Below are positions 1-60,232 of a stretch of 64,000 bases of DNA, one piece after another. How positions within the stretch are numbered: position 1 is the first letter of the stretch; each line of letters starts with the position of its first letter. The notes under the pieces were generated by a model. It did no database searches. It worked only from the letters and a program-made list of their open reading frames with translations, and was not told where the DNA came from. The stretch comes from Clostridium niameyense (lineage in GTDB: Bacteria; Bacillota; Clostridia; Clostridiales; Clostridiaceae), in the NCBI RefSeq assembly GCF_001243045.1, contig NZ_LN849007.1:2074989-2138988 (forward strand), in the 5' to 3' direction. The position numbers and the translations under genes are program-made.

Positions 1-3000
1 TACATTTACATTGGCAGTGCCTTTTGCTTTTGATGTTAAAGTAATTGAGTTAGTTGCATCATCTATTTTAGCATCTACTACAGATCTATCATCTACCATT
101 ACTTTAGCATTAGCATTAGTTATTTTTGTCTCTTTAAAATCTTTGCCAAATTGATCTTTAGCAACTACTTTTACTACAACTGCTCCATCTTTTTCTCCAT
201 CTGCATCTTTTCCATCAAGAAGAACTTGAATTCCTGATTTATCCTTGTTTCCATCAAGAACTTTCTTGTCTTCACTTGCTACAACATTAGTTGTTCCTTT
301 TTGAGGTGCTGCTTCTTTACTATCACAAGTTAAAGTTATTTCTGCTGATTTCATGTTTGCAGTTAAAACTTCTATTGTAACTGTTCCATTGAAGTTTTGA
401 GCTGGAGTAAATTCTCCTGTATGTTCTCCAATTGTTCCAACTGTAGCAACTGTAGCATCTTTATCATTAACTTTTCCTTTTACAGATTTTATCTTCCATG
501 CTAAATCCTTTGATGCATCTACAGGGACTACTTGTCCTTTAGCATCTTTAGCTATAGCTTTTAAGTTTACTTTATTATCTGCATTTTGTGTTGAGTATGC
601 TGGTTGTATTCCTTCTTTATCTATTTCAATGCTATTTATTAATCCAGCTACTGAATCAACTGTCATGTTAACTTTGTTAGTTGCAAGAACTGGAGTTTTT
701 CCATCTACTATTGCACCGTTAACATTAACAATAACATCATTTGTTCCCTTAGAAGTTCCTTTTACTATTGCTTTATATGCAACTGTAGCTCCCTTTTCTT
801 CTACTGGAGTTACTGCTCCTTCTAATGCAAAATGATCTCCTGCTTTTACTTCTATGTTAACTCCAGCAGTATTAGCTATAAAGTCACCATATTGATCCTT
901 TGGAACTATCTTTAATTCAGTTTGTCCGTTTAATGCAACATTTGTTGAAGTTGCAGTTACTTCTACTGTTTTAGCTACTCTCTTAGCTCCAACTGTTACA
1001 GTAAATGTATCAGATATCTTATTATCCTTATCTGCAATCTTAACTGTGTAAACACCTTGAGTTAATGCATCTGATGCTTTTACTCTAAAGCCTTTTACCT
1101 TAGCAACTCCTGTTGCTTTAGCAAATTCATCTGCTCCTGTTTCTTTGTTAAATCCATAAGCTGATGCTAATTGAACTAAATCTTCTACATTCTCTAATGG
1201 TTGACCATCTGGTTTAGTTACACTTACAGTTAAATCTTTAGCTTCGACTTCTGTTGCTACTCCATCTTGGTCTAAGAATTTAACTTCTTGATCATGTACC
1301 TTACCCTTAGCAGCTGGATCTCCTGCAACTACTCCTGTTACATCTGCTCCTGCATTTATAGCAGTGAATTTTGCTCCTACAAATTTTAAATCATAAGCTT
1401 TGAATACGTCACCCTTGCTTACTACTACATTGTAAGTTTTAGCATCCTTTAATTTTAAAGTTAATACATTCTTAGAAACACCATCTTTTTCTTCTTTAGT
1501 TACTGTAGCAACATCAGCACCATCTTTCGCTGGTGTAACTGTAACGTTAGCTTGACCATTTTCTACAACAACAACTTCACCGTGTTTGTTTTTAAATGTA
1601 ATATCTTTCTTTATTTCTGATCCTGCTTTTAATTCTGCAGCATCAAACTTAATTTCATCTATGCTAGCTACTGTTTGATCTACTGTAGTTGTTACATCAA
1701 AAGCATCTCCATGTGCTGTTGATTTTTCTAAGTTTTCTCCAACATAAGGAGTGATTGTGTATTTTCCTGGCTTATCAGTCTTAACAACAATAACTATATC
1801 ATTCTTGTTAGCTTCTTCTCCGCCTCTTACTTTAGCTGTAACTATTTTTGATACATCTACACCCTCTATATCTGTTTTAACATCAAATTTAATTTCTTCA
1901 GCTTTTAAGTTTGCACCATCGTTTGGAGTTACAACTTTAACTATATTTTCGTCTTTGTTATATGATCCTGCTCCTGCTTCATTTGCTAAAGTTAATGTAG
2001 TTAACTTCTTAGCACCTATTTCTACTGTATAAGATTTGCTCTTACCATTTCCTACATTATAAGCTGTGATTTTAACTTTTCCTGCTTTTGCAGCTTTAAA
2101 GCTAAAGTTTGGAGCATCTGATACTTCTTCTATTGCATTTCCATCAACTTTAGTTATTAAGTCTTTTCCTTCTTCAACTGCCCATCTTACTGTTGTATGT
2201 GCATCTTCAGCCATTGGATTACCAAATTGATCATTAACTTCTAATTTTAAATCTATTTGGTCTCCTGGTAAAACTTCTTCAGCAGCTTTATTTATTTCAT
2301 GTCCATTTTCTGCAACTTTATATGTAGCTTTTACGTCAGATAAATCTGTAGCTACTTGAGCTTCTCCTTTAACTATATCATATGATACAGAACCTAATTC
2401 TATATCCTTATCATTAACTGTATTTGTTAATGTTAATGATACTTTATCTCCCTCTTTAAGGTCTTTATCTATTTCAATTACACCATTTGCAATATTAGCT
2501 TTATTTATTTCATTAGCTTTTAATGGTGCTCCATTTATAGTTCCAGTAACTTTAATAGCATCAACTTTTCCTGCTAAATCTAATGCTTCACCATATTGAT
2601 CTTTAGCTGTAAAACGAACTAAATTTAAATCTGAATCTTTTGTATTAGCTGGTAAAACTTTTGTTGATACTTCTACTTTAGCTACATAAGTTGCACTAAC
2701 TTTAGCTACGAATGTATCCATAGTTAATTTAGTCCAATCAGCTGATACTGTATATTTAACAGCATCTGTTAATTTCTTTCCATTTTCTAATACAAAATTA
2801 GCTTTTCCGTCTTCTGTAAGACTTCCCTTAACATAAGTTGTTGTTAATTCTACATCATTAGCTTTTAAAGTTATTTTCTTTCCTTCTAAAGCTTTTTCAT
2901 TAACATCTTTAGCTAATCCACTTACTTGAATAGCTGTTTCATTTAAAGATTTTACAGAGTCAGCAGCAATTGCAAACTTAGCTTCTGCTTCTGCTAGTTT

Positions 3001-4209
3001 CTTATCAGCTTCAGCGATTCTCTTTTCAAAATCAGCTTTTTTAGCTTCATCTTTAACAACTTTAACTGTTTTAACTGCTTCTGCTTTTAATTCTTTAGCA
3101 GCTTTAATTTCTTCTGCGTTTGTTAATTTAGCACTTTCATAAGCTTTAACTGCTTTTTCTGCTGCAACTACATCTTCTGATTGTGGTGTAACAACACTAT
3201 CTATATCCTTAACTAAATCATCAGAAAGAATTGCTTCGCTACCTACTACATTTAAATCAGTTTTATCATTTATTTTTAAGTTTTCTTTCATATATTTAAC
3301 TGCCTTAGCATCTGTATCTTTATCATTTGATACTAGAACTACTGGTGAATTGAATTTTCCAGCTAATGCTGAAGCAACTAATGAGTCTACTAAGTGATCA
3401 TTTTGTCCATTAGCTATATATAAATGTGAGCCCTTCATGTTAAATGCATCTAAAACTAATCTATTAGTTTCAAATCTATCAGCTCCACCCTTTACTCTCT
3501 TGCTTGCTCCTAATTTATTATAGATTACATCTGATACTGTAACATCTCTACCTATAACTGTTACTTTTGAACTATGTGCATCTATAAATTTCTTTGCTTC
3601 ATTTGCTGTACTTTCATCTTCACCTACTAATAGAAGTATTTTTCCTTCTTTAGCAGCTACTGGTGCAGCTGTTAGTGCATCTGCTAAGTATTTATTTCCA
3701 TTAACAACTAAAACTTCTTTAGCTGATACGCCATGATTGCTTACTAATTCATTAGCTATAGCTATGTTAGTTTCATATCTGTCTTTTCCTGCTAATCTTT
3801 TTACTGTTTTACCTTCATTTTCTAAAGAAGATTTAATGTTTTCGCTTATAACTCCCTTAGAACCTAAAATATAAACATTTTTTGCTCCTAATTTGTTTAT
3901 AGCATTCTTTGTATTAGCATCTAAGCTATCTTTTCCAGTTAATAATACTGGTGCATCTAATTTTTGAGCTAATAATGATGCACTTAAAGCATCTGCATAA
4001 CCTTGTCCTGAAACTAATATTACATTTTTAGTTTCTCCGGCCTTCCAATTTGATGTTGCAACCTTAGCAGCTGTTTCATATCTGTTTGCTCCATCAAGTC
4101 TATCTACCTTTCCAGGTGCTGCTTGTACGTTTCCTGTAGAAATAGCTGTTGTTAGAACTAATCCTACTACTGTAGCACTTGCTAGTGCTCTTGTACTTTT
4201 TTTGTTCAT
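1..4209 (-). CDS. slpA-like: S-layer protein with CWB2 anchor, left tandem copy (partial, C-terminus off the window)
   Basis: The start codon is at 4209 with a GGAGGG ribosome binding site just upstream, and the frame reaches base 1 in phase with the end of the neighbouring paralogue's Ig-like region. I spot-checked the frame for stops in several lines but not exhaustively. The product has a signal peptide ending near VQA, three CWB2 repeats (about residues 35-325) that bind wall glycopolymer, a Lys/Ala/Glu-rich helical segment (about 345-415), then Ig-like repeats with DQYG/DQFG-type turns. The first 1.3 kb of the gene is almost identical to the copy at 6011-10921, the middle is diverged, and bases 1-470 match 6695-7165 closely. 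It is transcribed from its own promoter with the same extended -10 as the other copy. The missing part should hold the helical domain and the C-terminal beta domain. Confidence 0.93.
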   Translation of the reverse strand, partial: MNKKSTRALASATVVGLVLTTAISTGNVQAAPGKVDRLDGANRYETAAKVATSNWKAGETKNVILVSGQGYADALSASLLAQKLDAPVLLTGKDSLDANTKNAINKLGAKNVYILGSKGVISENIKSSLENEGKTVKRLAGKDRYETNIAIANELVSNHGVSAKEVLVVNGNKYLADALTAAPVAAKEGKILLLVGEDESTANEAKKFIDAHSSKVTVIGRDVTVSDVIYNKLGASKRVKGGADRFETNRLVLDAFNMKGSHLYIANGQNDHLVDSLVASALAGKFNSPVVLVSNDKDTDAKAVKYMKENLKINDKTDLNVVGSEAILSDDLVKDIDSVVTPQSEDVVAAEKAVKAYESAKLTNAEEIKAAKELKAEAVKTVKVVKDEAKKADFEKRIAEADKKLAEAEAKFAIAADSVKSLNETAIQVSGLAKDVNEKALEGKKITLKANDVELTTTYVKGSLTEDGKANFVLENGKKLTDAVKYTVSADWTKLTMDTFVAKVSATYVAKVEVSTKVLPANTKDSDLNLVRFTAKDQYGEALDLAGKVDAIKVTGTINGAPLKANEINKANIANGVIEIDKDLKEGDKVSLTLTNTVNDKDIELGSVSYDIVKGEAQVATDLSDVKATYKVAENGHEINKAAEEVLPGDQIDLKLEVNDQFGNPMAEDAHTTVRWAVEEGKDLITKVDGNAIEEVSDAPNFSFKAAKAGKVKITAYNVGNGKSKSYTVEIGAKKLTTLTLANEAGAGSYNKDENIVKVVTPNDGANLKAEEIKFDVKTDIEGVDVSKIVTAKVRGGEEANKNDIVIVVKTDKPGKYTITPYVGENLEKSTAHGDAFDVTTTVDQTVASIDEIKFDAAELKAGSEIKKDITFKNKHGEVVVVENGQANVTVTPAKDGADVATVTKEEKDGVSKNVLTLKLKDAKTYNVVVSKGDVFKAYDLKFVGAKFTAINAGADVTGVVAGDPAAKGKVHDQEVKFLDQDGVATEVEAKDLTVSVTKPDGQPLENVEDLVQLASAYGFNKETGADEFAKATGVAKVKGFRVKASDALTQGVYTVKIADKDNKISDTFTVTVGAKRVAKTVEVTATSTNVALNGQTELKIVPKDQYGDFIANTAGVNIEVKAGDHFALEGAVTPVEEKGATVAYKAIVKGTSKGTNDVIVNVNGAIVDGKTPVLATNKVNMTVDSVAGLINSIEIDKEGIQPAYSTQNADNKVNLKAIAKDAKGQVVPVDASKDLAWKIKSVKGKVNDKDATVATVGTIGEHTGEFTPAQNFNGTVTIEVLTANMKSAEITLTCDSKEAAPQKGTTNVVASEDKKVLDGNKDKSGIQVLLDGKDADGEKDGAVVVKVVAKDQFGKDFKETKITNANAKVMVDDRSVVDAKIDDATNSITLTSKAKGTANVNV

Positions 4210-4224
4210 AGTCTATACCCTCCT
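2880..4224 (-). repeat. Near-identical slp 5' block, left member (partner 9592-10936)
   Basis: The block covers the ribosome binding site, signal peptide, CWB2 repeats and helical linker. It matches the right copy at a constant offset of 6712 bases with only a handful of substitutions that I noticed. The coding sequence beyond it diverges strongly. This suggests recent duplication or ongoing gene conversion of the wall-anchor part. Confidence 0.85.
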
Positions 4225-4321
4225 AAAATATATTAATATTTTAAAAAATAATTAAAACAATACAATATTTCATTCAAAATATTTTACAATTTATGATTAA
4301 TTATAGCATATACCGCAAGTT
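4210..4321 (-). promoter_or_regulatory. Promoter and 5' UTR of the left slp copy
   Basis: On the minus strand an extended -10 (TGCTATAAT, bases 4300-4308) lies about 90 bases before the start codon. The same TATGCTATAATTAA string precedes the right slp copy. No good -35 is visible, which fits an extended -10 promoter. The 16 bases next to the start codon, including the GGAGGG ribosome binding site, are identical in both copies. Confidence 0.6.
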
Positions 4322-4721
4322 TTTTCTATAAATATATATTATACATTTTTTATAAATATTAGGATATCTATAAATATTTTGGATTAAATATAACCTAATT
4401 TTTACATACATGGGTGCTCATTGTAACTTTAAAAACCTATGTAATCGTTGGAATTATAAGGTTTAGTCTAAAGTTTATTTTATGTTTAGATTCTTATAAT
4501 AATGTTTTTTAATATAAAAACTGTTACTATATCTTATTATTTTCGTTAATAACAAGGTTTTTTTTACCCCTTTTAAAATAGTAAAATAAAAAATATTTTA
4601 TTGAATATTGTATTTTATTAGATTACTTTGTAGTATTATATATTTTTTTAAATATTTATGTTGTTCAACCTTTATTTTTATAAATATTTTGTTATTACTT
4701 GTCTATTTTTAAATTAGTATA
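4322..4721. other. A+T-rich spacer between the left slp copy and the small membrane protein gene
   Basis: I see no gene here. One inverted repeat (minus-strand ACATAGG with CCCATGT, about 4411-4443) lies upstream of the slp promoter. I looked here for a group II intron domain 5 (34-nt hairpin with AGC and a GNRA loop) and did not find one. Confidence 0.4.
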
Positions 4722-4762
4722 AAAGTAGACTATTAAATAATATATTCATTTAATAGTCTTTT
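4722..4762 (-). terminator. Intrinsic terminator of the small membrane protein gene
   Basis: The arms GACTATTAAAT and ATTTAATAGTC (4728-4738 and 4748-4758) flank a 9-base loop. They sit directly after the stop codon at 4771 and are followed on the minus strand by a short T-rich tract. Confidence 0.65.
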
Positions 4763-4770
4763 CCTATTTT

Positions 4771-5139
4771 TTATTTTGTCCAAACTAATACAATTAAATG
4801 GTCTTTAGCGTCAACTACATTAATTTTAGTTATATGCCCATCCTTTTTAGCCTCTATATTTTCTAGGTTATTATCTTTTATAATTTTCCATCCATCTTTT
4901 TCTAAAACTCTTTTATAGCCTTTCAGATAGCTCTTATATTTAGTCCCTTTTACTTTATATACAGCATTTCCAAGATTATCTCTTTTAGCTGATTCACTTT
5001 TTTGAACTTGCATGTTTTTATACTTAGGATGATATGTAAATTCTTTAGTGTAGCTTATTCTTTGAGAATTAAATATAAATGCTCCCAATATTATAATTAA
5101 TATTACTATACTACTTAATATTGTTTTTTTATTTTTCAT
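4771..5139 (-). CDS. Small membrane-anchored protein of unknown function
   Basis: This is a 122-residue protein with a Lys-rich N-terminus, one hydrophobic segment (about residues 5-24) and an extracytoplasmic Lys-rich domain of mixed alpha/beta character ending in VLVWTK. I recognise no family. An AAGGTG ribosome binding site precedes the ATG, and the gene has its own terminator. It lies between the two slp copies, downstream of the group II intron-like RNA and of that unit's terminator. If intron domains 5-6 lie further downstream, this gene would sit inside intron domain 4. A lipobox is absent, so it is probably held by an uncleaved signal anchor. A role at the cell surface is only inferred from topology and position. 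Confidence 0.75.
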   Translation of the reverse strand: MKNKKTILSSIVILIIILGAFIFNSQRISYTKEFTYHPKYKNMQVQKSESAKRDNLGNAVYKVKGTKYKSYLKGYKRVLEKDGWKIIKDNNLENIEAKKDGHITKINVVDAKDHLIVLVWTK

Positions 5140-5197
5140 ATAACAACACCTTCTATAATTACTTATATATTAGTAGAGATATTATCTTAGTAAAAAT

Positions 5198-5236
5198 AAA
5201 GATCATTGGGTAGATTCACTCCACCCAATGACCTTT
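5198..5236 (-). terminator. Strong intrinsic terminator after the slp-intron unit
   Basis: The arms CATTGGGT and ACCCAATG (within 5204-5230), extended by AAAG/CTTT pairs, are followed on the minus strand by a T-rich tract. It lies about 770 bases downstream of the intron-like 5' end. It would end most transcripts of the right slp gene before the small protein gene and the left slp copy. Confidence 0.75.
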
Positions 5237-5289
5237 ATTGACATGTTTATTTATTTTTCAACCAGTGATGTGATCTGGCTATGTTTATG

Positions 5290-6005
5290 ATTTTCTTGAT
5301 TAGTATTATATTGATAGGTTTTAGTTTTGATATGTTCCGTTCATTTATTTGAAATTTATTTAATACTTAACTTCCTATTACCGACTGGGTTCCCTTGCTA
5401 ACTCAGTTTTATCCTTCCCCTATGTTACCATAAAGGTACTTTAGATATTTTAAAAATCTAACTTTCAGCTGAGTTTCATCGCTACTATGAACCTGCTGAG
5501 CCCGTATATAAGTCATTGGTGCTGCTACACCTATTTATATACGACATCAAACGTTCGGTTCTATCTATCCCTTTTTTTAATTGCCTTAGGTATCCACTAA
5601 CGACTTACTTTGCCTTAGTTTAACAGCCAATTATTCCAAAGCCAATACAATATTTCAATTATATTGATTCATGCCAAACTGTAAGCATAACCATCATTTA
5701 ACAGCATGAATTGTATCTATAAGACGCATTATAATGGATTCGTCTTCCTTACCATAGCAATCTTTTAAAGAACTCCGCATACGACTCTCACGTATTACGA
5801 CCTTACCTAGCTTCATAAATTTAACTTAGCAGTTTAAATCCATATAGAGAACTCAAGCTCAGAGCATTGTGCTGTTTACTCTGAATAGGAATTTCACCTA
5901 TCTAATCAATAGAACAGTTAGAAAATAGGGAAAAGGCAATGTTTCTTTTCCCTTAAATACTTTCCACCTATTTCGCCATAAGGCTTATAAGGTAACGTTT
6001 CGCAC
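5290..6005 (-). ncRNA. Group II intron-like ribozyme RNA (domains 1-4), no ORF, at the slp stop codon
   Basis: On the minus strand the element begins with GTGCG (6005-6001), the group II 5' boundary, five bases after the slp stop codon. About 700 bases of strongly paired RNA follow, including a GGGAAAAG/CTTTTCCC stem (5928-5952). The string CATAGTAGCGATGAAA (5489-5474) resembles the domain 3 region of bacterial group II introns. A stem-loop near 5660-5705 displays TACAGTTT (5683-5676), which is complementary over 8 bp to AAACTGTA at the very end of the slp coding sequence (6021-6014). It is therefore a good EBS1/IBS1 candidate. That pairing ends exactly before the TAA, 8 nt upstream of GTGCG. 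This matches what I recall of C. tetani intron C.te.I1, which uses a 5' splice site shifted by 8 nt. No reverse transcriptase ORF is present and no domain 5-6 was found before the terminator. The 3' limit is approximate. Confidence 0.8.
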
Positions 6006-6010
6006 TTTTA

Positions 6011-9000
6011 TTATACAGTTTTTTTCACAGTTACTTTGTAAGTTTTTGTAGCACCACTTTCAGCTGTAACTTCTACAGTTATAACATCCTTTTCAGATAA
6101 TACCTTCTCAGCTAAATCTTTGCCTTTAACTTCATCTTTGCCTACTTTTACAACTACTTTTTTTACTTTCTTTGAGTTTGCTTCTACATTTATTCCCTTT
6201 ACCGCATCACTTGAGAAATCAGAAAAAGTCTTTTCTGCTCCAGAAGTTGTTACATTTTCAAGATCTACTACAGATTGTCCCCCTATAGTGAAAGTCTTTA
6301 ATGTAGCATCTGTATCTTGTGCCTTCTTAGTTCCTTTTTGTTTCTTTCCGTTAAATGTTTCAGTTGCTTTATTTAACTCCTTTAAAGCATCTTCAAATTC
6401 TTTTTTAGTTGATTTTCCATTATCCTTTATACCTTCAGCTGTAGTTATAGCCTTATTATAATCTTCCTTATCTGCTTTTAGTACAAAATCAGTTCCTTCT
6501 TCTACTTGATCAGCTGCAGTGCCTTCTTTAACTGCATCTTTTCCTTGTTTAGCTTTAGTTATAGCTCCGTTTAAGGCTTCTTTAGCTTCTTGAGTAGCTT
6601 TTGCTAAATTATCTGCTTCAGCTTTTGTTTTAGCTGCTTTAGCCGCTTCCTCATTAACTGAAACTTCTAATTTAACAGTATCTCCATTGTATATTACATT
6701 TACATTGGCAGTGCCTTTTGCTTTTGATGTTAAAGTAATTGAGTTAGTTGCATCATCTATTTTAGCATCTACTACAGATCTATCATCTACCATTACTTTA
6801 GCATTAGCATTAGTTATTTTTGTCTCTTTAAAATCTTTGCCAAATTGATCTTTAGCAACTACTTTTACTACAACTGCTCCATCTTTTTCTCCATCTGCAT
6901 CTTTTCCATCAAGAAGAACTTGAATTCCTGATTTATCCTTGTTTCCATCAAGAACTTTCTTGTCTTCACTTGCTACAACATTAGTTGTTCCTTTTTGAGG
7001 TGCTGCTTCTTTACTATCACAAGTTAAAGTTATTTCTGCTGATTTCATGTTTGCAGTTAAAACTTCTATTGTAACTGTTCCATTGAAGTTTTGAGCTGGA
7101 GTAAATTCTCCTGTATGTTCTGCAATTGTTCCAACTGTAGCAACTGTAGCATCTTTAACATTTTTAGGATCCTCAGCCGCAACTTTTCCCTTTACAGATT
7201 TTATCTTCCATGCTAAATCTTTTGATGCATCTACTGGAACTACTTGTCCTTTGGCATCTTTAGCTATAGCCTTTAATTGCACCTTAGTACCTGCTTCTTT
7301 TGTTGAGTATGCTGGTTGTATTCCTTCTTTATCTATTTCTACACTGTTTATTAATCCAGCCACTGAGTCAACTGTCATCTTAACTTTGTTAGTTGCAAGA
7401 ACTTTGTCGCCATCTTTAACATTAACAACAACTTCACCTGAACCCTTAGCAATTCCTGATACCTCTGCTTTGTATCCAACCTTAACAGCTTTGTCATCTT
7501 CTAGTTCAGATACAGCTCCTATTTTAAAGTTATCTCCTGCTTTAATTTCTATCTTACCTGCTCCAACTTCTATCAACTCACCATATTGATCCTTTGGAAC
7601 TATCTTTAATTCAGTTTTTCCGTTTAATGCGATACTTGCTGAAGTTGCAGTTACTTCTACTGCTTTAGCTACTCTCTTAGCTCCAACTGTTACAGTAACT
7701 GTATCAGATATCTTATTATCTTTATCTGCAATCTTAACTGTATAAGTTCCTTGTGTAAGAGTTGCTACTGGGCTTATTTTATATGCTACTATATTATCTT
7801 TACTATCATCTGATTCTTCGAAATTAACAACACCCTTTTTGTCAACACTATAAGTCTTTCCTAATGTTATTAATTTATTTAAGTCTTTTTCATCCAATTC
7901 TTGACCGTCTGGTTTTGTAACAGATACCTTTATATCCTCTTTTTTAACATCCATTGCTTTTCCATCTTGATCTAAAAATTTAACTTCTTGATATTTAGCT
8001 TTATTAACTTCCGCATCTCCTGCAACTACTCCTGTTATATCTGCTCCTGCATTTATAGCTGTGAATTTTGCTCCTACAAATTTTAAATTATAAGCTTTAA
8101 ATACGTCACCCTTGTTTACTACTACATTGTAGTTTTTAGCATCCTTTAATTTTAAAGTTAATATATTCTTAGCAACGCCATCTTTTTCTTCTTTAGTTAC
8201 TGTAGCAACATTTGCACCATCTTTTATATCTATATTTGGTGTAACTGTAACATCAGCTTTTTTGTTTTCTACAACAACCACTTCACCATGTTTATTTCTA
8301 AATGTAACATCTTTCTTTATTTCTGTTCCTATTTTTAATTCTGCAGCATCAAACTTAATATCATCTATGCTAGTTACAGTTTGATCCACTGTAGTTGTTA
8401 CATCAAAAGCATCTCCGTGGGCTGTTGATTTTTCTAAACTTTCCCCAACATAAGGAGTTATTGTATACTTTCCTGCTTTTTTAGATTTAACAGCGATAAC
8501 TATATCATTTTTCTTATCTTTATCTTCGCCGCCTCTTACCTTAGCTGAAACTTCTACGTCAGCTGAAGTTAAACCTTTTTCCTCTGTCTTAACATCAAAT
8601 TTAATATCTGAAGCTTTTAAATTTGCACCATCGTTTGGAGTTACAACTTTAACTATGTTTTCATCTTTATTAAATCTTGTTCCAGCTTCATCTGCTAACT
8701 TTAATTCAGTTAACTTCTTAGCGCCTATTTCTACTGTATAAGATTTGCTCTTACCATTTCCTACATTGTAAGCTGTGATTTTAACTTTTCCTGCATTCTT
8801 AGCTGTATATGCAAAGTCAACTGAATCTACTACTCCATCTTTATAATCTGGTGTTGTAACATTTATTAAGTCTTTTCCTTCTTCAACAACCCATCTTACA
8901 TCTGTATCATTTTTCATTGGGTTACCAAATTGGTCATTAACCTCTAATTTTAAATCTATTTGATCATCTGGTAATACTTCTTCAGCTTTTTTATCTTTTT

Positions 9001-10921
9001 CATGTCCATTTTCTGCAACTTTGTATGTAGCTTTTATATCAGATAAATCTGTAGCTACTTGAGCTGCTCCCTTAACTACAACATATGATGCATTACCTAC
9101 TTCAACATCTTTTTCATTAATTTTCTTTGTTAATGCTAGAGATATTTTATCTCCTTCTTTAAGATCTACATTTATTTGAATTATGCCTTTTTCTATGTTA
9201 TCTTTGTTTATTTCTTCAACTTTTAATGGTGCTCCATTTATAGTTCCCTTAACTTCAAGACCTTTAACATTTTCTTTTGATAATGTTAAATCTTCACCAT
9301 ATTGATTTTTAGCTGTAAAACGAACTAAATTTAAGTCTTTATCCTTCTTTTCTAAATTAGCCGGTAAAATTTTTGTTGATACTTCTACTTTAGCTATATA
9401 TGGTGTTTTTACTCTAGCTGTAAATGTATCAATAGTTAATTTAGCCCAATCAGCTGATACTGTATATTTAACAGTATCTGTTAACTTCTTTCCATTTTCT
9501 AATACGAAATTAGCTTTTCCGTCTTCTGTAAGACTTCCTTTAACATAAGTTGCTGTTAATTCTACATCATTAGCTTTTAAAGTTATTTTCTTTCCTTCTA
9601 AAGCTTTTTCATTAACATCTTTAGCTAATCCACTTACTTGAATAGCTGTTTCATTTAAAGATTTTACAGAGTCAGCAGCAATTGCAAACTTAGCTTCTGC
9701 TTCTGCTAGTTTCTTATCAGCTTCAGCGATTCTCTTTTCAAAATCAGCTTTTTTAGCTTCATCTTTAACAACTTTAACTGTTTTAACTGCTTCTGCTTTT
9801 AATTCTTTAGCAGCTTTAATTTCTTCTGCGTTTGTTAATTTAGCACTTTCATAAGCTTTAACTGCTTTTTCTGCTGCAACTACATCTTCTGATTGTGGTG
9901 TAACAACACTATCTATATCCTTAACTAAATCATCAGAAAGAATTGCTTCGCTACCTACTACATTTAAATCAGTTTTATCATTTATTTTTAAGTTTTCTTT
10001 CATATATTTAACTGCCTTAGCATCTGTATCTTTATCATTTGATACTAGAACTACTGGTGAATTGAATTTTCCAGCTAATGCTGAAGCAACTAATGAGTCT
10101 ACTAAGTGATCATTTTGTCCATTAGCTATATATAAATGTGAGCCCTTCATGTTAAATGCATCTAAAACTAATCTATTAGTTTCAAATCTATCAGCTCCAC
10201 CCTTTACTCTCTTGCTTGCTCCTAATTTATTATAGATTACATCTGATACTGTAACATCTCTACCTATAACTGTTACTTTTGAACTATGTGCATCTATAAA
10301 TTTCTTTGCTTCATTTGCTGTACTTTCATCTTCACCTACTAATAGAAGTATTTTTCCTTCTTTAGCAGCTACTGGTGCAGCTGTTAGTGCATCTGCTAAG
10401 TATTTATTTCCATTAACAACTAAAACTTCTTTAGCTGATACGCCATGATTGCTTACTAATTCATTAGCTATAGCTATGTTAGTTTCATATCTGTCTTTTC
10501 CTGCTAATCTTTTTACTGTTTTACCTTCATTTTCTAAAGAAGATTTAATGTTTTCGCTTATAACTCCCTTAGAACCTAAAATATAAACATTTTTTGCTCC
10601 TAATTTGTTTATAGCATTCTTTGTATTAGCATCTAAGCTATCTTTTCCAGTTAATAATACTGGTGCATCTAATTTTTGAGCTAATAATGATGCACTTAAA
10701 GCATCTGCATAGCCTTGTCCTGAAACTAATATTACATTTTTAGTTTCTCCAGCTTTCCAATTTGATGTTGCAACCTTAGCAGCTGTTTCATATCTGTTTG
10801 CCCCATCAAGTCTATCTACCTTTCCAGGTGCTGCTTGTACGTTTCCTGTAGAAATAGCTGTTGTTAAAACTAATCCTACTACTGTAGCACTTGCTAGTGC
10901 TCTTGTACTTTTCTTGTTCAT
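6011..10921 (-). CDS. slpA: S-layer protein with CWB2 anchor, right tandem copy
   Basis: This 1636-residue secreted protein is the likely main S-layer subunit. A signal peptide (about residues 1-30, ending VQA) precedes three CWB2 wall-binding repeats (about 35-325), a Lys/Ala/Glu-rich coiled segment (about 345-415) and a long run of Ig-like domains marked by NQYGE, DQFGN, DQYGE and DQFGK turns (about 430-1420). A helical FIVAR-like region (about 1430-1540) and a cadherin-like beta domain close the chain. The start has a GGAGGG ribosome binding site and an extended -10 promoter about 125 bases upstream. The last codon is GTA and the stop TAA is followed by TAAAA and then the intron-like GTGCG. 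If the RNA splices at the EBS1-defined site, the stop codon is removed and the protein gains a new C-terminus. The N-terminal third is almost identical to the left copy. Confidence 0.95.
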   Translation of the reverse strand: MNKKSTRALASATVVGLVLTTAISTGNVQAAPGKVDRLDGANRYETAAKVATSNWKAGETKNVILVSGQGYADALSASLLAQKLDAPVLLTGKDSLDANTKNAINKLGAKNVYILGSKGVISENIKSSLENEGKTVKRLAGKDRYETNIAIANELVSNHGVSAKEVLVVNGNKYLADALTAAPVAAKEGKILLLVGEDESTANEAKKFIDAHSSKVTVIGRDVTVSDVIYNKLGASKRVKGGADRFETNRLVLDAFNMKGSHLYIANGQNDHLVDSLVASALAGKFNSPVVLVSNDKDTDAKAVKYMKENLKINDKTDLNVVGSEAILSDDLVKDIDSVVTPQSEDVVAAEKAVKAYESAKLTNAEEIKAAKELKAEAVKTVKVVKDEAKKADFEKRIAEADKKLAEAEAKFAIAADSVKSLNETAIQVSGLAKDVNEKALEGKKITLKANDVELTATYVKGSLTEDGKANFVLENGKKLTDTVKYTVSADWAKLTIDTFTARVKTPYIAKVEVSTKILPANLEKKDKDLNLVRFTAKNQYGEDLTLSKENVKGLEVKGTINGAPLKVEEINKDNIEKGIIQINVDLKEGDKISLALTKKINEKDVEVGNASYVVVKGAAQVATDLSDIKATYKVAENGHEKDKKAEEVLPDDQIDLKLEVNDQFGNPMKNDTDVRWVVEEGKDLINVTTPDYKDGVVDSVDFAYTAKNAGKVKITAYNVGNGKSKSYTVEIGAKKLTELKLADEAGTRFNKDENIVKVVTPNDGANLKASDIKFDVKTEEKGLTSADVEVSAKVRGGEDKDKKNDIVIAVKSKKAGKYTITPYVGESLEKSTAHGDAFDVTTTVDQTVTSIDDIKFDAAELKIGTEIKKDVTFRNKHGEVVVVENKKADVTVTPNIDIKDGANVATVTKEEKDGVAKNILTLKLKDAKNYNVVVNKGDVFKAYNLKFVGAKFTAINAGADITGVVAGDAEVNKAKYQEVKFLDQDGKAMDVKKEDIKVSVTKPDGQELDEKDLNKLITLGKTYSVDKKGVVNFEESDDSKDNIVAYKISPVATLTQGTYTVKIADKDNKISDTVTVTVGAKRVAKAVEVTATSASIALNGKTELKIVPKDQYGELIEVGAGKIEIKAGDNFKIGAVSELEDDKAVKVGYKAEVSGIAKGSGEVVVNVKDGDKVLATNKVKMTVDSVAGLINSVEIDKEGIQPAYSTKEAGTKVQLKAIAKDAKGQVVPVDASKDLAWKIKSVKGKVAAEDPKNVKDATVATVGTIAEHTGEFTPAQNFNGTVTIEVLTANMKSAEITLTCDSKEAAPQKGTTNVVASEDKKVLDGNKDKSGIQVLLDGKDADGEKDGAVVVKVVAKDQFGKDFKETKITNANAKVMVDDRSVVDAKIDDATNSITLTSKAKGTANVNVIYNGDTVKLEVSVNEEAAKAAKTKAEADNLAKATQEAKEALNGAITKAKQGKDAVKEGTAADQVEEGTDFVLKADKEDYNKAITTAEGIKDNGKSTKKEFEDALKELNKATETFNGKKQKGTKKAQDTDATLKTFTIGGQSVVDLENVTTSGAEKTFSDFSSDAVKGINVEANSKKVKKVVVKVGKDEVKGKDLAEKVLSEKDVITVEVTAESGATKTYKVTVKKTV

Positions 10922-13540: not shown

Positions 13541-14617
13541 CTAGTTTATTGATATTACTTCAAATTTATTATTATCCGCTATTTCATTTTGTATATCATT
13601 TTTTATTATTTCTGATACACAAGTAGGACCTCCGATTAAGTAAATCTTACTATGTGGGTCTACACTATTTACTATAAATTTCTTAGCATTTTCTACTTCT
13701 ATAGCTCCTGCTCCATTTCCTGAAAGCACTAAAGGTGAACCTGTTTTAGCTGCAGCTGCTGCGGCTACCAATCCATCTGCAAATTGATCTTTTGTTCTTC
13801 CTCCTTGAGCTATATATACTTTGCTAAAATCTAAATTATCCCCTTTTTCTTGGAAATATTTTAAAACTGTTAAGTTAGTATCAAATCTATTTTTAGCATC
13901 TTTGTCTTTAGTTATTCTTTCCCCATTTACTGATTTTATAACAGAGTCTGGTAGTATTCCACTACTACCTACAGCAAGTGGCTTCAATTTATTTTTATTT
14001 ATTAAATTTTTAGCTATTTTAGGCACTTCGTATTTATTTACAAATATTACTGGCCATCCTTTCATAGCTGCTATTGGGGCTACTGTTAAAGAATCTGGAT
14101 ATCTATTGTCGTCCCCGGCACTTACCATAAGACAATTTTTACACTTAGGATTTAATTTTAATATTTGCTCTGCTACTTTAATATTAGTTTCATATCTGTC
14201 TTTTCCTGCATATCGAGTAACACTAAATCCTCTATTTTTAAGCTCATTTTCTATAGAATTAGATACTACTCCTGCACTACCTAATATGTATACTTTCTTA
14301 GCACCTAACTCTTTTATAGTTTTTAATATTTCAGGTTCTAATTTTAATCCATTAGTAAGTAATACTGGACCCTTCACTAATTTTGAAAGTGGTGCTCCTG
14401 TAGCTGCATCTGGATATCTATAACCATTTACTAATACAATAGAATCTGGTTTTGAATCCTTAAATATCTTTAAAGCTACATCATTTGCTGTACTCATTCT
14501 GTCTTTACCACTTAATCTATATACTTCAGCAGCTTGTACCTTACTAAAACTTGCTGATAATAAAATAAGCATTGCTGATAATGCTACTGTAAAAAACTTT
14601 CCTAATCTTTTGTACAC
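13541..14617 (-). CDS. Cell wall protein made only of CWB2 repeats
   Basis: The 358-residue secreted protein has a signal peptide (about residues 1-29, ending VQA) and three CWB2 repeats filling the rest of the chain. The repeats carry the usual motifs such as RLSGKDRMSTA, RYAGKDRYETN and the VYILGS/IYLIGG strands. There is no effector domain, unlike the S-layer proteins to its left. It could cap or compete for the same wall polymer, or act as a minor S-layer-associated protein. It is a single gene, with its own GGAGGGAG ribosome binding site, located between the convergent apbE operon and the rnf terminator. Confidence 0.92.
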   Translation of the reverse strand: MYKRLGKFFTVALSAMLILLSASFSKVQAAEVYRLSGKDRMSTANDVALKIFKDSKPDSIVLVNGYRYPDAATGAPLSKLVKGPVLLTNGLKLEPEILKTIKELGAKKVYILGSAGVVSNSIENELKNRGFSVTRYAGKDRYETNIKVAEQILKLNPKCKNCLMVSAGDDNRYPDSLTVAPIAAMKGWPVIFVNKYEVPKIAKNLINKNKLKPLAVGSSGILPDSVIKSVNGERITKDKDAKNRFDTNLTVLKYFQEKGDNLDFSKVYIAQGGRTKDQFADGLVAAAAAAKTGSPLVLSGNGAGAIEVENAKKFIVNSVDPHSKIYLIGGPTCVSEIIKNDIQNEIADNNKFEVISIN

Positions 14618-54167: not shown

Positions 54168-56033
54168 TTAATTTAAAATATAATCTGAATATATATCTGA
54201 AAACTCTATATTCACACTTTCTATATCTCTATCATAATCAAATTCTTCAACACAAGGACTATTTTCAATTATTTTAACAGGAATATTTATAATAAATTTA
54301 CTACCTTCATTTATCTTACTTGTAACACTTATAGTTCCACCATGCATTTCTACAAAAGATTTTACAATATATAACCCTATTCCACTACCTTCTCTATTTC
54401 TATTAAAAGTCTTGTCCACTTGAGCAAATCTGCCAAATATTTTTCCTATTTCTTTTTCTGGTATTCCTATGCCAGTATCTCTAACAGAAATTATAATACT
54501 ATCTCCTTTGTCTTTAATATTTACATATATGTTTCCTCCAGGTTTAGTAAACTTTATAGCATTAGATAATAAGTTAAGAATTATTCTTTCCATTTTATCT
54601 GCATCAAAACTCATTATTTTTTCTTCCACATCTGTATCAAAAATTAAATTTAATCCTTGCTTTTCAACATATGGAGCCACAGATAAGGTAACGTCTTCAA
54701 TAAAACTTATACTATTATAATTTTTTTTACTTAATCTTAAAAAACCTGCATCTAATCTGCTTATATCTAATAAATTATTAATTAGTCTCATTAATCTATA
54801 GCAGTTTTGTCTCATCATATATAAATATTTATGTTTTTTATCTGTAAATTCATCCATATTATTAAACTTATAAGAACTTAATAATTGAACTGCAGAAAAT
54901 ATAACATTTAAAGGTGTTTTTAATTCATGAGATATGTTAGCTAAAAACTCCGTAATTAATTTATTAAATGCTCTACTTTCATTTAATAATTCTATATTCT
55001 TTTCTACATCTTTTTTTAATATTTCAACTTTTTTCTCTGAAGTAATGTCACTTAATATAGTTAATATAGTAGGTTTTCCTTCATATATAAAATAAGTTGA
55101 AGTACTTCTTGTAAGTATACTCTTCTTTTTATCATTTAATATTTCTTGCTCAAAATGTACTAAAGTAAGCTTATTTTCATATATTCCCTTCAATTTCTTT
55201 TTTATGGTATCTTTTTTATTTCCAGGAATAAAATCTAATATAGATCTATCACTAAATTCATTAAATTTTTCTAATCCTAATAGTTTTCTTGCACTTTCAT
55301 TTATAAAAATTAATTTATTTTGTCTATGAATTAAAATAGCATCTCTTGAGTTTTCTATAAGTAAATTATAACATTCTTCATTTTTTACAAGTATTTCTTC
55401 TATGTATCTTCTTTCCTTATCCTTTTGACTTAATTCATTAGTTAATAACTTAAGTTTTTTCTCTTTTTTTTCTAAATTCTTCTGCTCTATTTTAACATAA
55501 TATCCTAAAGTCCAAGCTGTTAATATAAATACCCCTACTATTATTAAATCATTTTCAAACTGTACATTAACATTTATATTTTTACCAAATATTAAATCTA
55601 TAGATAATATTATTATTGAGGAAATTATTGAAACAGCCATGCCATGTTTTATACCTGATTGTATGGTTGATGTAATAATTACAAATAAAAATAAAAATTT
55701 ATATGGGCTATTGCAATTATTAGAGAAGATTATTAAAATAGAAAAAATAAATATAAATAATGAATTATCAACCACTTGGATTTTTTTAATATTATTATTT
55801 TGAGATGTTTTAATAAAATACGATATCCACCAACAATATGCTAGCATAGTAATGGTAACCAATAAACCCAATGTAATCATATTAAGTTGCTTACTATTAG
55901 TAATATTGCTAAGAATTTTATTTGAATATAAAATATTATAGAATGCAATACTACAAAAAAATAAAGAAGCTAATCTTACAGCAGATATTATATTACTTAT
56001 ATTATTTTCCCTTTCCTTCATAAAATCACTCAT
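54168..56033 (-). CDS. Hybrid-membrane PAS histidine kinase downstream of agrD
   Basis: The 621-residue kinase has about six membrane helices (about residues 15-185), a coiled coil (about 185-215), a PAS domain (about 215-335), HisKA with FLANISHELKTPLNVIFS (His near 378) and HATPase with NLLSNAIKF, DTGIGIPEKE and GSGIGLYIVKSF. All phosphotransfer motifs are intact. It shares most of its sequence with the kinase at 57811-59676. It follows agrD by 75 bases and lacks the AgrC-type membrane domain; a protein resembling that domain is encoded at 56976-57449. No response regulator gene lies nearby. The partner regulator and signal are unknown. Confidence 0.92.
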   Translation of the reverse strand: MSDFMKERENNISNIISAVRLASLFFCSIAFYNILYSNKILSNITNSKQLNMITLGLLVTITMLAYCWWISYFIKTSQNNNIKKIQVVDNSLFIFIFSILIIFSNNCNSPYKFLFLFVIITSTIQSGIKHGMAVSIISSIIILSIDLIFGKNINVNVQFENDLIIVGVFILTAWTLGYYVKIEQKNLEKKEKKLKLLTNELSQKDKERRYIEEILVKNEECYNLLIENSRDAILIHRQNKLIFINESARKLLGLEKFNEFSDRSILDFIPGNKKDTIKKKLKGIYENKLTLVHFEQEILNDKKKSILTRSTSTYFIYEGKPTILTILSDITSEKKVEILKKDVEKNIELLNESRAFNKLITEFLANISHELKTPLNVIFSAVQLLSSYKFNNMDEFTDKKHKYLYMMRQNCYRLMRLINNLLDISRLDAGFLRLSKKNYNSISFIEDVTLSVAPYVEKQGLNLIFDTDVEEKIMSFDADKMERIILNLLSNAIKFTKPGGNIYVNIKDKGDSIIISVRDTGIGIPEKEIGKIFGRFAQVDKTFNRNREGSGIGLYIVKSFVEMHGGTISVTSKINEGSKFIINIPVKIIENSPCVEEFDYDRDIESVNIEFSDIYSDYILN

Positions 56034-56064
56034 ATAATCACACCCATTAATATTATTTATATCA

Positions 56065-56097
56065 GCAATAAAGGATCTTTAAAGATCCTTGTATTGC
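56065..56097 (-). promoter_or_regulatory. Hairpin between agrD and the kinase gene
   Basis: The perfect palindrome AAGGATCTTTAAAGATCCTT (56071-56090) is extended by GCAATA/TATTGC pairs. No long T run follows on the minus strand, so it looks more like an attenuator, partial terminator or mRNA-processing/stabilising element than a full terminator. It would set agrD and kinase levels apart. Confidence 0.6.
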
Positions 56098-56107
56098 CAT
56101 GATATAT

Positions 56108-56242
56108 TTATTTTTTTAAACATTTAGGTTCTTTAGGTTGATATGCTCCTATTGCACAAACTGATGCTGATGTAGAATTAGCTACACCTTTTAATACCTT
56201 AGCACTTAATTTTGATAATTTTTTTCCTGTTAAGTTCTTCAT
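56108..56242 (-). CDS. agrD: AgrD-like autoinducing-peptide precursor
   Basis: This 44-codon gene was too short for routine gene calling. It has GGGGG eight bases before the ATG on the minus strand. The peptide has a basic amphipathic N-terminal part (Lys-rich, about residues 1-20), the core NSTSASVCAIGAY, and a C-terminal tail QPKEPKCLKK resembling the YQPKxP tail of clostridial AgrD proteins. The likely signal is a thiolactone ring from Cys29 to about Ala33 with a short N-terminal tail; processing is inferred by analogy. A second Cys (41) lies in the discarded tail. It follows agrB by 90 bases and precedes a kinase gene. Confidence 0.88.
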   Translation of the reverse strand: MKNLTGKKLSKLSAKVLKGVANSTSASVCAIGAYQPKEPKCLKK

Positions 56243-56331
56243 TATTTATTCCCCCTGATTAATAATATTATTATATATGTGTACATTGATTTTTTAATTG
56301 TTATAAATTAAAAATCAATGGACAAATCAAA

Positions 56332-56985
56332 TTATATTTTTATTACTTTCTCCAATAATTTATCAAATTTCTTTACAAATATGTGACCCTTTGATGTAAG
56401 TGTAAAACTTTGCCACAATAATCCCACATATATACAATTTATAAAATTTAATATAAAATTATTTTTACTTTTATAATAAATTCCTAACAGTATTAACACA
56501 ATTAAAGTAGATACACTAATTATTACTTTGGAATATCTTTTAAACTTTTCTTTTTGATGTACATCTTCTATAGGTTTTTGTATACTATCTACTGGAGCAT
56601 ACTTATTTACTAAATAAAAGCATAAAATTAAACTTATTAATGATGCTGTACAAATGAAAACATAACTAAAATTACAAAAAATCTTTTTTATTATAATAGC
56701 TAGTCCTACAATTATAACTGTACCTATTACTAAACACCTACCAGGTGAATCAGCATGTACACCTCCTGAATATTTTCTTAATAGACTAACACATATACAT
56801 ATAATAATTGATTCTAAAAATACATTAAAAATTGCACCAAATATTATAATAGATAAGATACAAGATAAAGTATGTATCAATACAAATGTCCCATAAATAA
56901 TAACTTCTTTAGAGTCTTCATCTAATTTTAAGCTTTCTGTAATTTTATTTCCTACCTTATCAGATATAACTTCTATTAAATACAT
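56332..56985 (-). CDS. agrB: AgrB-family peptide-processing protease
   Basis: The 217-residue membrane protein has about six helices. The catalytic pair of AgrB is present at His77 and Cys84 in GGVHADSPGRC, the same positions as in staphylococcal AgrB. It cleaves AgrD, forms the thiolactone and helps export it. The start overlaps the end of the preceding small membrane protein gene by 10 bases, so the two are translationally coupled. agrD follows. This gene set differs from the classical agrBDCA order because the sensor domain and kinase are separate. Confidence 0.94.
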   Translation of the reverse strand: MYLIEVISDKVGNKITESLKLDEDSKEVIIYGTFVLIHTLSCILSIIIFGAIFNVFLESIIICICVSLLRKYSGGVHADSPGRCLVIGTVIIVGLAIIIKKIFCNFSYVFICTASLISLILCFYLVNKYAPVDSIQKPIEDVHQKEKFKRYSKVIISVSTLIVLILLGIYYKSKNNFILNFINCIYVGLLWQSFTLTSKGHIFVKKFDKLLEKVIKI

Positions 56986-57449
56986 TTATCCTTACCCCTT
57001 AATGATTTATTAACAAGTTTATACACAACTAAAACAATAAATAAAAGTAAAATCAATGATGGCATAAAATATTCTACTCTTTTTAAAGGAGAATTCATTG
57101 AAATCTCAATATTTATTTTCAAAAAATTTTTTAAGAAAAATAAATTTCCTAATTCACACAAGGCTAAGGTTGTCATAGATATTAATCCACATCCTATAGA
57201 CTTTTGAATACTAAGTCTATTAATTAATATACATAATAATATAAGCACCATAGTATTAAGAATAAAGTGTATTCCAAAATGAATAGGTAAAAATCTTATC
57301 AAATATATACTAATTGAAAATAAACAGCTAGATATAATATATTTACTTCTATAAAATTCTTCTCCAGACATAATATAAATTAAAAAAACAATCAGAAACG
57401 ACTCAGGTACAACTCTCAAAAATAATTCTAAAAATGATATTTTTAGCAT
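56976..57449 (-). CDS. Small AgrC-sensor-like membrane protein
   Basis: The protein of 157 residues consists of five or six membrane helices with no kinase domain. It shares LPIHFGIHFI near residue 55 and SPLKRVEYF...PSLILLL near the end with the 153-residue protein at 59771-60232. In my recollection the N-terminal sensor domain of clostridial AgrC looks similar; this is not searched. The start at 57449 follows AAAGGAG; the longer frame begins inside the promoter (TTGACT at 57495-57500). It starts the agr operon. It may be a free-standing receptor half that signals through the nearby kinase, or a modulator. Confidence 0.75.
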   Translation of the reverse strand: MLKISFLELFLRVVPESFLIVFLIYIMSGEEFYRSKYIISSCLFSISIYLIRFLPIHFGIHFILNTMVLILLCILINRLSIQKSIGCGLISMTTLALCELGNLFFLKNFLKINIEISMNSPLKRVEYFMPSLILLLFIVLVVYKLVNKSLRGKDKCI

Positions 57450-57470
57450 ATATAATTTCTCCTTTGTTTT

Positions 57471-57500
57471 ATTATAATATATTTTTACCAATAAAGTCAA
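57471..57500 (-). promoter_or_regulatory. Consensus promoter of the agr operon
   Basis: On the minus strand TTGACT (57500-57495) and TATAAT (57476-57471) are separated by 18 bases, about 22 bases before the start codon region. This near-consensus sigma-A promoter argues for strong constitutive expression of the agr unit and supports the start at 57449. Confidence 0.75.
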
Positions 57501-57763
57501 TAAAAGTAATTTATATTATATTTTTCTATAAAATGTATTATTTTAAACAACCAAACCAATTTATATAATATAATTCATAATAAATGTTGTTATTTTGCTC
57601 AAAAATTACAAGTATTATTTTTTATACCTTTTTTATCTATTTTATCATAATATAAGTAATTAATACAAATTTTCTAAAATAATTAATTTTGCTTTAGAAA
57701 ATAATTTATTAATTAAATTAAAAATTATGTATAAATATTTATATTAAAATACTAATTATAGAA
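57501..57763. other. A+T-rich spacer between the two kinase units
   Basis: I see no gene here beyond the agr promoter and the following terminator. I looked for a second agrD and found none. Confidence 0.4.
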
Positions 57764-57810
57764 AAAGACCATATCAAAATTATTAAAAAAATAATTTTGA
57801 TATGGTCTTT
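57764..57810 (-). terminator. Strong terminator of the second kinase gene
   Basis: Twenty-one-base perfect arms (AAAGACCATATC... with ...GATATGGTCTTT) abut the stop codon of the kinase at 57811. It separates the kinase unit from the agr promoter. Confidence 0.88.
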
Positions 57811-59676: not shown

Positions 59677-59770
59677 ATATCAATCACATCCATTAAGATT
59701 TTTTTATTATGTAATATACTTTAATGTCATTTACTTTTAATAAATAATATATTATCTAAATAAAATATTT

Positions 59771-60232
59771 TTAATTAAATCTTTGATGCTCACTTACATA
59801 CTTTCTAATTAATAAAACAACAATTAATAATAAAATCAAAGAAGGACTAAAACATATAAGTTTTGTGTATGAGGACGAAAATACAAAGCCTATATCTAGC
59901 TTTAATATATATTCTAATATGAACAAATTTATCCACTCACACACAGATAAGAGCATCATACTTGCCATAGAATATGCTATGGCCTTATTAATAGGAATTT
60001 TATTTATTAATATACTTATAAATATAATAACTATAATATTTATAATAAAATGAATTCCAAAGTGTATAGGTAAAATTCTAACTAGAAAGATCAATATTGA
60101 TGTAATTAAGCAACTTGCAATATACCTCGCTTTATTTATCTTAATTTTTGAAAGACTATTAATTAATAAAAAAATTATAAGTGTTTCAGGTATCATTCTA
60201 AAAATCAATATTGGGAAATGTACTTTTAACAT
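59771..60232 (-). CDS. Small AgrC-sensor-like membrane protein, second copy
   Basis: The 153-residue protein has five or six membrane helices, the shared LPIHFGIHFI motif near residue 54, and no kinase domain. It is related to the product of 56976-57449 and precedes a kinase by 94 bases, giving the same small-protein/kinase order without agrBD. No AgrD-like ORF was seen in the 94-base gap or the 270 bases upstream. The start follows AAAGGAG at the same spacing as in its paralogue. Confidence 0.78.
   Translation of the reverse strand: MLKVHFPILIFRMIPETLIIFLLINSLSKIKINKARYIASCLITSILIFLVRILPIHFGIHFIINIIVIIFISILINKIPINKAIAYSMASMMLLSVCEWINLFILEYILKLDIGFVFSSSYTKLICFSPSLILLLIVVLLIRKYVSEHQRFN

What the first reader, a model, noticed from the sequence alone, without database searches (positions are those of the whole stretch)
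5290..6021. Group II intron-like ribozyme placed so that splicing removes the S-layer stop codon
The element starts with GTGCG five bases after the TAA of the S-layer gene. Its inferred EBS1 loop (TACAGTTT, 5683-5676, in a stem-loop) pairs over 8 bp with AAACTGTA, the last eight coding bases (6021-6014). The pairing ends exactly before TAA, 8 nt upstream of the canonical boundary. Splicing there would delete the stop and fuse the full S-layer protein to a downstream exon. From memory, C. tetani C.te.I1 does this with several alternative 3' ends. If this is another species or strain, it is a second example. The pairing is seen directly; the splicing is inferred.
Basis: partly seen in the sequence, partly recalled or inferred. 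Interest (0 to 1): 0.95.

Follow-up and report, generated by a model that had tools for sequence, protein, structure and literature searches.

The report
Half an intron behind S-layer gene
Behind a bacterial surface-layer gene lies the front part (domains 1 to 4) of a self-splicing group II intron, still set to cut just before the stop codon as in a known tetanus-bacterium intron, but its catalytic domain is missing from the whole window, so it probably no longer splices here unless the missing part lies elsewhere.

Summary
EBS1 (5683-5676) is exactly complementary to the last eight coding bases of the S-layer gene (6021-6014), ends before TAA, and sits 8 nt upstream of GTGCG. Homology now proves group II identity: a profile of ten RT-bearing introns hits 6005-5371 at E=7e-29, starting exactly at GTGCG. 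The -8 register is the published peculiarity of C. tetani C.te.I1. What fails is "splicing removes the stop codon". Domain 5, present in all 14 relatives examined and found in 14 of 14 held-out tests, is absent from all 64 kb (best E=23); no domain 6 or intron protein was found either, and a terminator-like hairpin follows. A shrunken D5-like hairpin (5280-5260) hints at decay in place. McNeil et al. (2013) already reported D1-4 "remnants" beside S-layer genes, in four C. botulinum strains among others; this locus resembles that species. Best reading: a C.te.I1-type intron that lost its catalytic half and now forms the 3' UTR. A split, trans-splicing intron is not excluded: no whole genome of this or a related strain could be searched for D5/D6.

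The parts
6011..10921 (-). S-layer protein gene (1636 aa), the 5' exon
   Evidence: ORF; CW_binding_2 domains, PF04122, three stretches, E=2.9e-47
6014..6021 (-). IBS1, last eight coding bases AAACTGTA; putative shifted 5' splice site after 6014
   Evidence: exact complement of EBS1
6011..6013 (-). stop codon TAA lying between the shifted site and GTGCG
6001..6005 (-). canonical group II 5' boundary motif GTGCG
   Evidence: profile of ten relatives aligns from its position 1 at 6005
5549..6000 (-). domain 1, closed by a 7-bp helix 6000-5994/5555-5549
   Evidence: helix coordinates; exact complement also in 9 of 10 relatives, at offset 463-548 in 8 of them; alignment
5667..5711 (-). EBS1 hairpin with enlarged loop (29 nt)
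5676..5683 (-). EBS1 TACAGTTT
5498..5548 (-). domain 2 (boundaries approximate)
   Evidence: fold and alignment
5465..5497 (-). domain 3 with CATAGTAGCGATGAAA motif (boundaries approximate)
   Evidence: motif shared with close relatives
5371..5464 (-). start of domain 4; conserved segment around 5408-5381 altered at 5396 and 5394
   Evidence: profile hit ends 5371; deviations
5260..5280 (-). possible shrunken domain 5 (AGCCA/TGGTT stem, AC bulge, 21 nt instead of about 34); no domain 6 seen behind it
   Evidence: 3 such shapes on the minus strand of 64 kb, 0 on plus; defined after it was seen
5190..5239 (-). terminator-like hairpin plus T run, probable end of the S-layer transcript
   Evidence: 20-bp stem, -28.1 kcal/mol; not listed by the consensus scan
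4771..5139 (-). next ORF (122 aa), own ATG, no Pfam match
   Evidence: in-frame TAA at 5172-5170
1..4209 (-). second S-layer gene copy, cut by the window edge; its 3' end cannot be seen
   Evidence: about 89-91% identical to the first; sequence

Best explanation
It is the 5' part (domains 1 to 4, no intron protein) of a C.te.I1-type group II intron at the 3' end of an S-layer gene. Its ancestor probably spliced out the stop codon through the -8 EBS1/IBS1 register and joined the S-layer protein to downstream exons. In this locus the catalytic domain 5 and domain 6 have been lost (a shrunken D5-like hairpin may remain), so the RNA cannot splice on its own and stays as a structured 3' UTR; the protein ends at its TAA. 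Shown: the homology, the register, and that no D5, D6 or IEP was found in the window. Inferred: the ancestral splicing, the loss in place, and the absence of splicing in the cell.
For: Profile hit 6005-5371, E=7.2e-29. Of 14 introns compared, 8 align with z above 5, the best two (Cytobacillus plasmids) 13.6 and 12.6. 8 Watson-Crick pairs at -8 and no pairing of 5 or more at 0, while six of six aligned relatives can pair at 0, three of them only with G-U pairs. D5 profile: 14 of 14 held-out D5s found at E 5.8e-10 or better in their loci (about 4-5 kb each), nothing better than E=23 in the window. No Rfam intron match at E up to 5 (1-6200) or 10 (the rest), while RF00029 finds 9 of 11 RT-bearing loci. 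No RT (best E 0.73). The element keeps 65 of 77 columns invariant in ten relatives (84%), held-out relatives 92-99%, as expected for relaxed constraint. D5-like hairpin at 5280-5260. Terminator-like hairpin. Published remnants in the same setting.
Against: The EBS1/IBS1 pairing, the EBS1 stem and the D1 closing helix are all perfect, more than one expects after long neutral decay (but I picked these helices). With six relatives the element keeps 83 of 104 invariant columns (80%), more than one of the six held-out introns (L104, 72%), so D1-D4 may still be constrained. D5/D6 may lie beyond the window edge, which cuts the second S-layer gene. The D5-like hairpin was noticed first and scanned for afterwards. 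The consensus scan did not list the terminator.
Confidence: 0.62

Rival explanations
1. Split intron: domains 1-4 here, one or more D5/D6-plus-exon units elsewhere (downstream of the second S-layer gene or at another locus); splicing in long-range cis or in trans removes the stop and adds alternative C-terminal parts.
For: Register and S-layer setting as in C.te.I1, whose authors considered trans-splicing; EBS1/IBS1 intact; D1-D4 fairly well conserved; the downstream S-layer array is cut by the window edge; some group I C. botulinum strains carry full group II introns with ltrA that could lend a maturase (PMC8865420, passages), if the host is of that group.
Against: No D5 in 64 kb; terminator-like hairpin right behind the element; a D5-like degenerate hairpin sits where D5 should be. 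No whole genome could be searched.
Confidence: 0.22
2. Co-opted 3' UTR: D1-D4 is kept for its fold (mRNA stability, termination or translation), not for splicing.
For: Strong fold, z -3.9; conserved columns kept at 80-84% against 56-58% identity to the nearest relative; terminator-like hairpin behind it.
Against: EBS1/IBS1 has no obvious role in such a function; no comparison among strains was possible.
Confidence: 0.14
3. Not a group II element; chance resemblance.
For: No Rfam D1-D4 model matches.
Against: Those models also missed 4 of 11 RT-bearing loci; homology E=7e-29.
Confidence: 0.02

Closest known systems
C.te.I1 of Clostridium tetani (McNeil, Simon and Zimmerly, PMC3919590)
   Same: Group II ribozyme without IEP, directly behind an S-layer gene's stop codon; EBS1 in an enlarged loop pairs 8 nt upstream of GUGCG so that the stop would be removed; no evident EBS2.
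   Different: C.te.I1 has a D5/D6 plus three further D5/D6 units with exons and splices in vivo and in vitro; none of that is in this window. Stop codon 2 nt before GUGCG there, 5 nt here; EBS1 loop 24 nt there, 29 here. The sequences were not compared (C. tetani sequence not held).
Ribozyme-derived D1-4 sequences beside S-layer genes (Figure 5 of the same paper; C. botulinum Okra, Langeland, 230613, D 1873, Lysinibacillus and others)
   Same: Domains 1-4 next to cell-surface genes, judged remnants by the authors.
   Different: The text and legends that I read (parts 1-4 of 5) say nothing of a retained shifted EBS1/IBS1 pairing in them; the figure itself was not held.
RT-bearing group II introns of Bacilli plasmids (L096 Cytobacillus oceanisediminis, L099 C. 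firmus, L102 Niallia)
   Same: Homologous over D1-D4, about 51-58% identity, same kind of D1 closing helix and D3 motif.
   Different: They have the IEP, D5, D6 and can pair EBS1 next to GTGCG.
Circularly permuted group II ribozymes (PMC8637638, parts 1-2 of 9 and passages read)
   Same: D1-D4 not followed by D5.
   Different: They carry D5-D6 upstream; none is found upstream here.

Membership tests
Group II intron ribozyme, domains 1-4 | GUGYG start and sequence homology over D1-D4 | tested here: met
   profile E=7.2e-29, aligned from its first position at 6005; 8 of 14 single comparisons with z above 5, 5 of 14 below 3
Group II intron ribozyme, domains 1-4 | D1 closing helix supported by covariation | tested here: met
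   7-bp exact helix at offset 463-548 with six different sequences in 8 of 10 relatives; L105 matches only at offset 403, L107 not at all
   no Rfam group II match; weak test, since the D1-D4 models also missed 4 of 11 RT-bearing loci
Complete group II intron | catalytic domain 5 | tested here: not met
   best window match E=23 against 14 of 14 held-out D5s found; RF00029 absent at E up to 5-10
Complete group II intron | domain 6 and 3' splice site | tested here: not met
   RF00029 covers D5-D6, no match; 5259-5240 folds unpaired; no separate D6 profile was made
Mobile group II intron | intron-encoded reverse transcriptase | tested here: not met
   tblastn of three IEPs to the window: best E 0.73
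C.te.I1-type alternatively splicing intron | EBS1/IBS1 pairing 8 nt upstream of GUGCG, enlarged EBS1 loop | tested here: met
C.te.I1-type alternatively splicing intron | absence of EBS2 | tested here: inconclusive
   only 5-6 nt matches, the longest overlapping EBS1 itself
C.te.I1-type alternatively splicing intron | several D5/D6 units each followed by an in-frame exon | tested here: not met
   none in the window; beyond the window untested
C.te.I1-type alternatively splicing intron | splicing observed | not testable with these tools
   no RNA data

The most novel reading that the evidence does not exclude
A natural split group II intron in a bacterium: D1-D4 behind this S-layer gene work with D5/D6-exon units encoded elsewhere, so that trans-splicing makes alternative S-layer proteins.
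Probability: 0.12. Interest if true: 0.9.

Novelty: new member of a known kind. Interest (0 to 1): 0.42.

Why it matters
It suggests that the odd arrangement of C.te.I1 (an S-layer stop codon between the shifted and the canonical splice site) is not peculiar to C. tetani but existed in a wider set of Clostridium and was later lost, or split, in some. It also gives a concrete question: whether any 'remnant' D1-D4 still finds a D5/D6 partner in its genome.

Tried and rejected
Rfam covariance models: no group II match in the window; not taken as evidence against D1-D4 because the D1-D4 models also missed 4 of 11 RT-bearing loci, but taken as evidence against D5/D6 (RF00029 found 9 of 11; L014 and L018 were missed). 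Circularly permuted intron: no D5/D6 upstream. The 122-aa ORF as downstream exon: own start, frame closed ten codons upstream. The D3 word match in seven viral contigs was taken for chance at 16 bases, without looking into the contigs. blastn of the element or parts of it against plasmids and phages gave nothing or only pieces of at most 37 bases at E 0.6 or worse in the rows shown; this search is insensitive, since it also missed L096 and L099. pBM400's intron (L002) and the phage introns (z up to 3.1) were too distant to help; L014 led to the informative plasmid introns. Of the 50 plasmid hits listed (5,000 records and more match) I fetched 13; five of the 14 introns compared (those 13 plus L014) gave z below 3. 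The profile used the ten introns in which I recognised a GTGYG start; L098, L100, L103 and L108 were left out. Searches used six of the 14, chosen because they align well, so 'relatives pair at 0' rests on six: best in L102 (9 nt, 7 Watson-Crick); L099 (6) and L104 (5) all Watson-Crick but with equally long or longer duplexes at another shift; L096, L097 and L101 weak with G-U pairs, and L101 also has a longer duplex at shift 8. McNeil and Zimmerly 2014 (PMC4024640) was not held.

Full report
What is there. On the minus strand the S-layer gene 10921-6011 (1636 aa, CWB2 domains) ends ACT GTA TAA, followed by TAAAA and GTGCG at 6005. The eight last coding bases pair exactly with 5683-5676, in the loop of a perfect 8-bp stem.

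Is it chance? For the exact register, 1.2% of simulated elements contain such a site anywhere; for any register within 32 bases, 26%. The register is the one published for C.te.I1: the cut lies 8 nt upstream of GUGCG and removes the stop codon, and EBS1 lies in a 24-nt loop instead of the usual 9-10 (PMC3919590, parts 1-4 of 5 read). Here the loop is 29 nt.

Group II identity. Rfam gave no group II match, but as a control its D1-D4 models matched only 7 of 11 loci with an intron reverse transcriptase, and RF00029 (D5-D6) 9 of 11. I therefore collected introns by their reverse transcriptase and fetched 13 from Bacilli and Clostridioides plasmids. Against these 13 and L014 the element scores z 13.6, 12.6, 7.6, 6.6, 6.3, 5.9, 5.9, 5.7, 3.4 and, for five, below 3 (100 Markov shuffles each). 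A profile of ten of the 14 (element excluded) has one hit in the window at E up to 1: 6005-5371, minus strand, E=7.2e-29, starting at profile position 1 (score 93.5 bits, bias 44). The D1 closing helix is a 7-bp exact complement in 9 of 10 relatives, in 8 at offset 463-548 with six different sequences. So it is the D1-D4 part of a group II intron. That it belongs to class B is what the paper says of C.te.I1; the class was not tested here.

The shift. In six aligned relatives the last exon bases before GTGCG can pair with the EBS1 region (5-9 nt, three of six only with G-U pairs); in the element no duplex of 5 or more forms there, but 8 Watson-Crick pairs form at shift 8. Other registers give duplexes of similar length in several relatives (L099, L104, L101), so the contrast is best seen in L102 and is otherwise modest.

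What is missing. All 14 relatives have a D5. Leaving each out in turn, the D5 profile found it in 14 of 14 loci at E 5.8e-10 or better; in the window the best match is E=23. No reverse transcriptase is in the window (best E 0.73). The homology stops in D4 at 5371. A 21-nt hairpin at 5280-5260 has the AGC start and AC bulge of a D5 but is about 13 nt too short; such shapes occur three times on the minus strand of 64 kb (two are the same place in the two S-layer copies) and not on the plus strand, and in at most 0.08% of simulated 100-nt stretches. This definition was made after seeing it. A 20-bp hairpin of -28.1 kcal/mol with a short T run follows; I read it as a terminator, though the consensus scan does not list it. 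Then comes an ORF with its own start, whose frame is closed ten codons upstream.

Decay or constraint? Of 77 columns invariant in ten relatives the element keeps 65 (84%), held-out relatives 92-99%; with six relatives 83 of 104 (80%) against 72-93%. Two of the changed positions (5396, 5394) lie in a D4 segment conserved in relatives that I take, by recall, for the maturase-binding site, as expected once the protein is lost. So constraint acted for a long time and is weaker now, or has changed. This does not settle whether D1-D4 is dead.

Where it comes from. No genome of the window is held, two protein-pattern scans of genome contigs confirmed no relative of the S-layer protein, and blastn found no near copy of the element in plasmids or phages. 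Two tandem CWB2 S-layer genes about 90% identical around a small ORF fit CBO0378 and CBO0380 of group I C. botulinum ATCC 3502 (PMC9368847, passages); two Agr-like gene groups fit too, by recall. The species is thus probably C. botulinum group I or C. sporogenes: an inference. The C. tetani paper lists D1-4 sequences beside S-layer genes of four C. botulinum strains among others and calls them remnants, so the kind of element is known.

Literature. By the titles and abstract starts shown (several lists were capped), searches listed no paper on splicing at this locus or on a second C.te.I1-type intron; PMC4424553 (passages) called C.te.I1 in 2015 the sole exception among bacterial ORF-less introns without a related IEP in the genome. 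Most subscription papers are not held.

Verdict. Observation confirmed; group II identity shown by homology; splicing not supported in this window. Most likely a C.te.I1-type intron that has lost its catalytic end; a split intron remains possible.

Noticed in passing
1-4209 and 6011-10921, minus strand: Two tandem S-layer genes about 89-91% identical (95.7% over the last 560 visible bases), separated by the ribozyme piece and one small ORF.
   Followed up: partly
13541-14617, minus strand: A third CWB2 cell-wall-binding protein beside an Rnf-like gene cluster (the Rnf name is recalled).
   Followed up: no
54168-60232, minus strand: Two similar histidine kinase genes with AgrB-like and membrane-protein genes, looking like a duplicated Agr system (names recalled).
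   Followed up: no
L101 (Niallia circulans plasmid), upstream of the intron: Besides a weak pairing at the canonical site, an 8-nt EBS1-region duplex (6 Watson-Crick) at shift 8; probably chance, but the same register as here.
   Followed up: no
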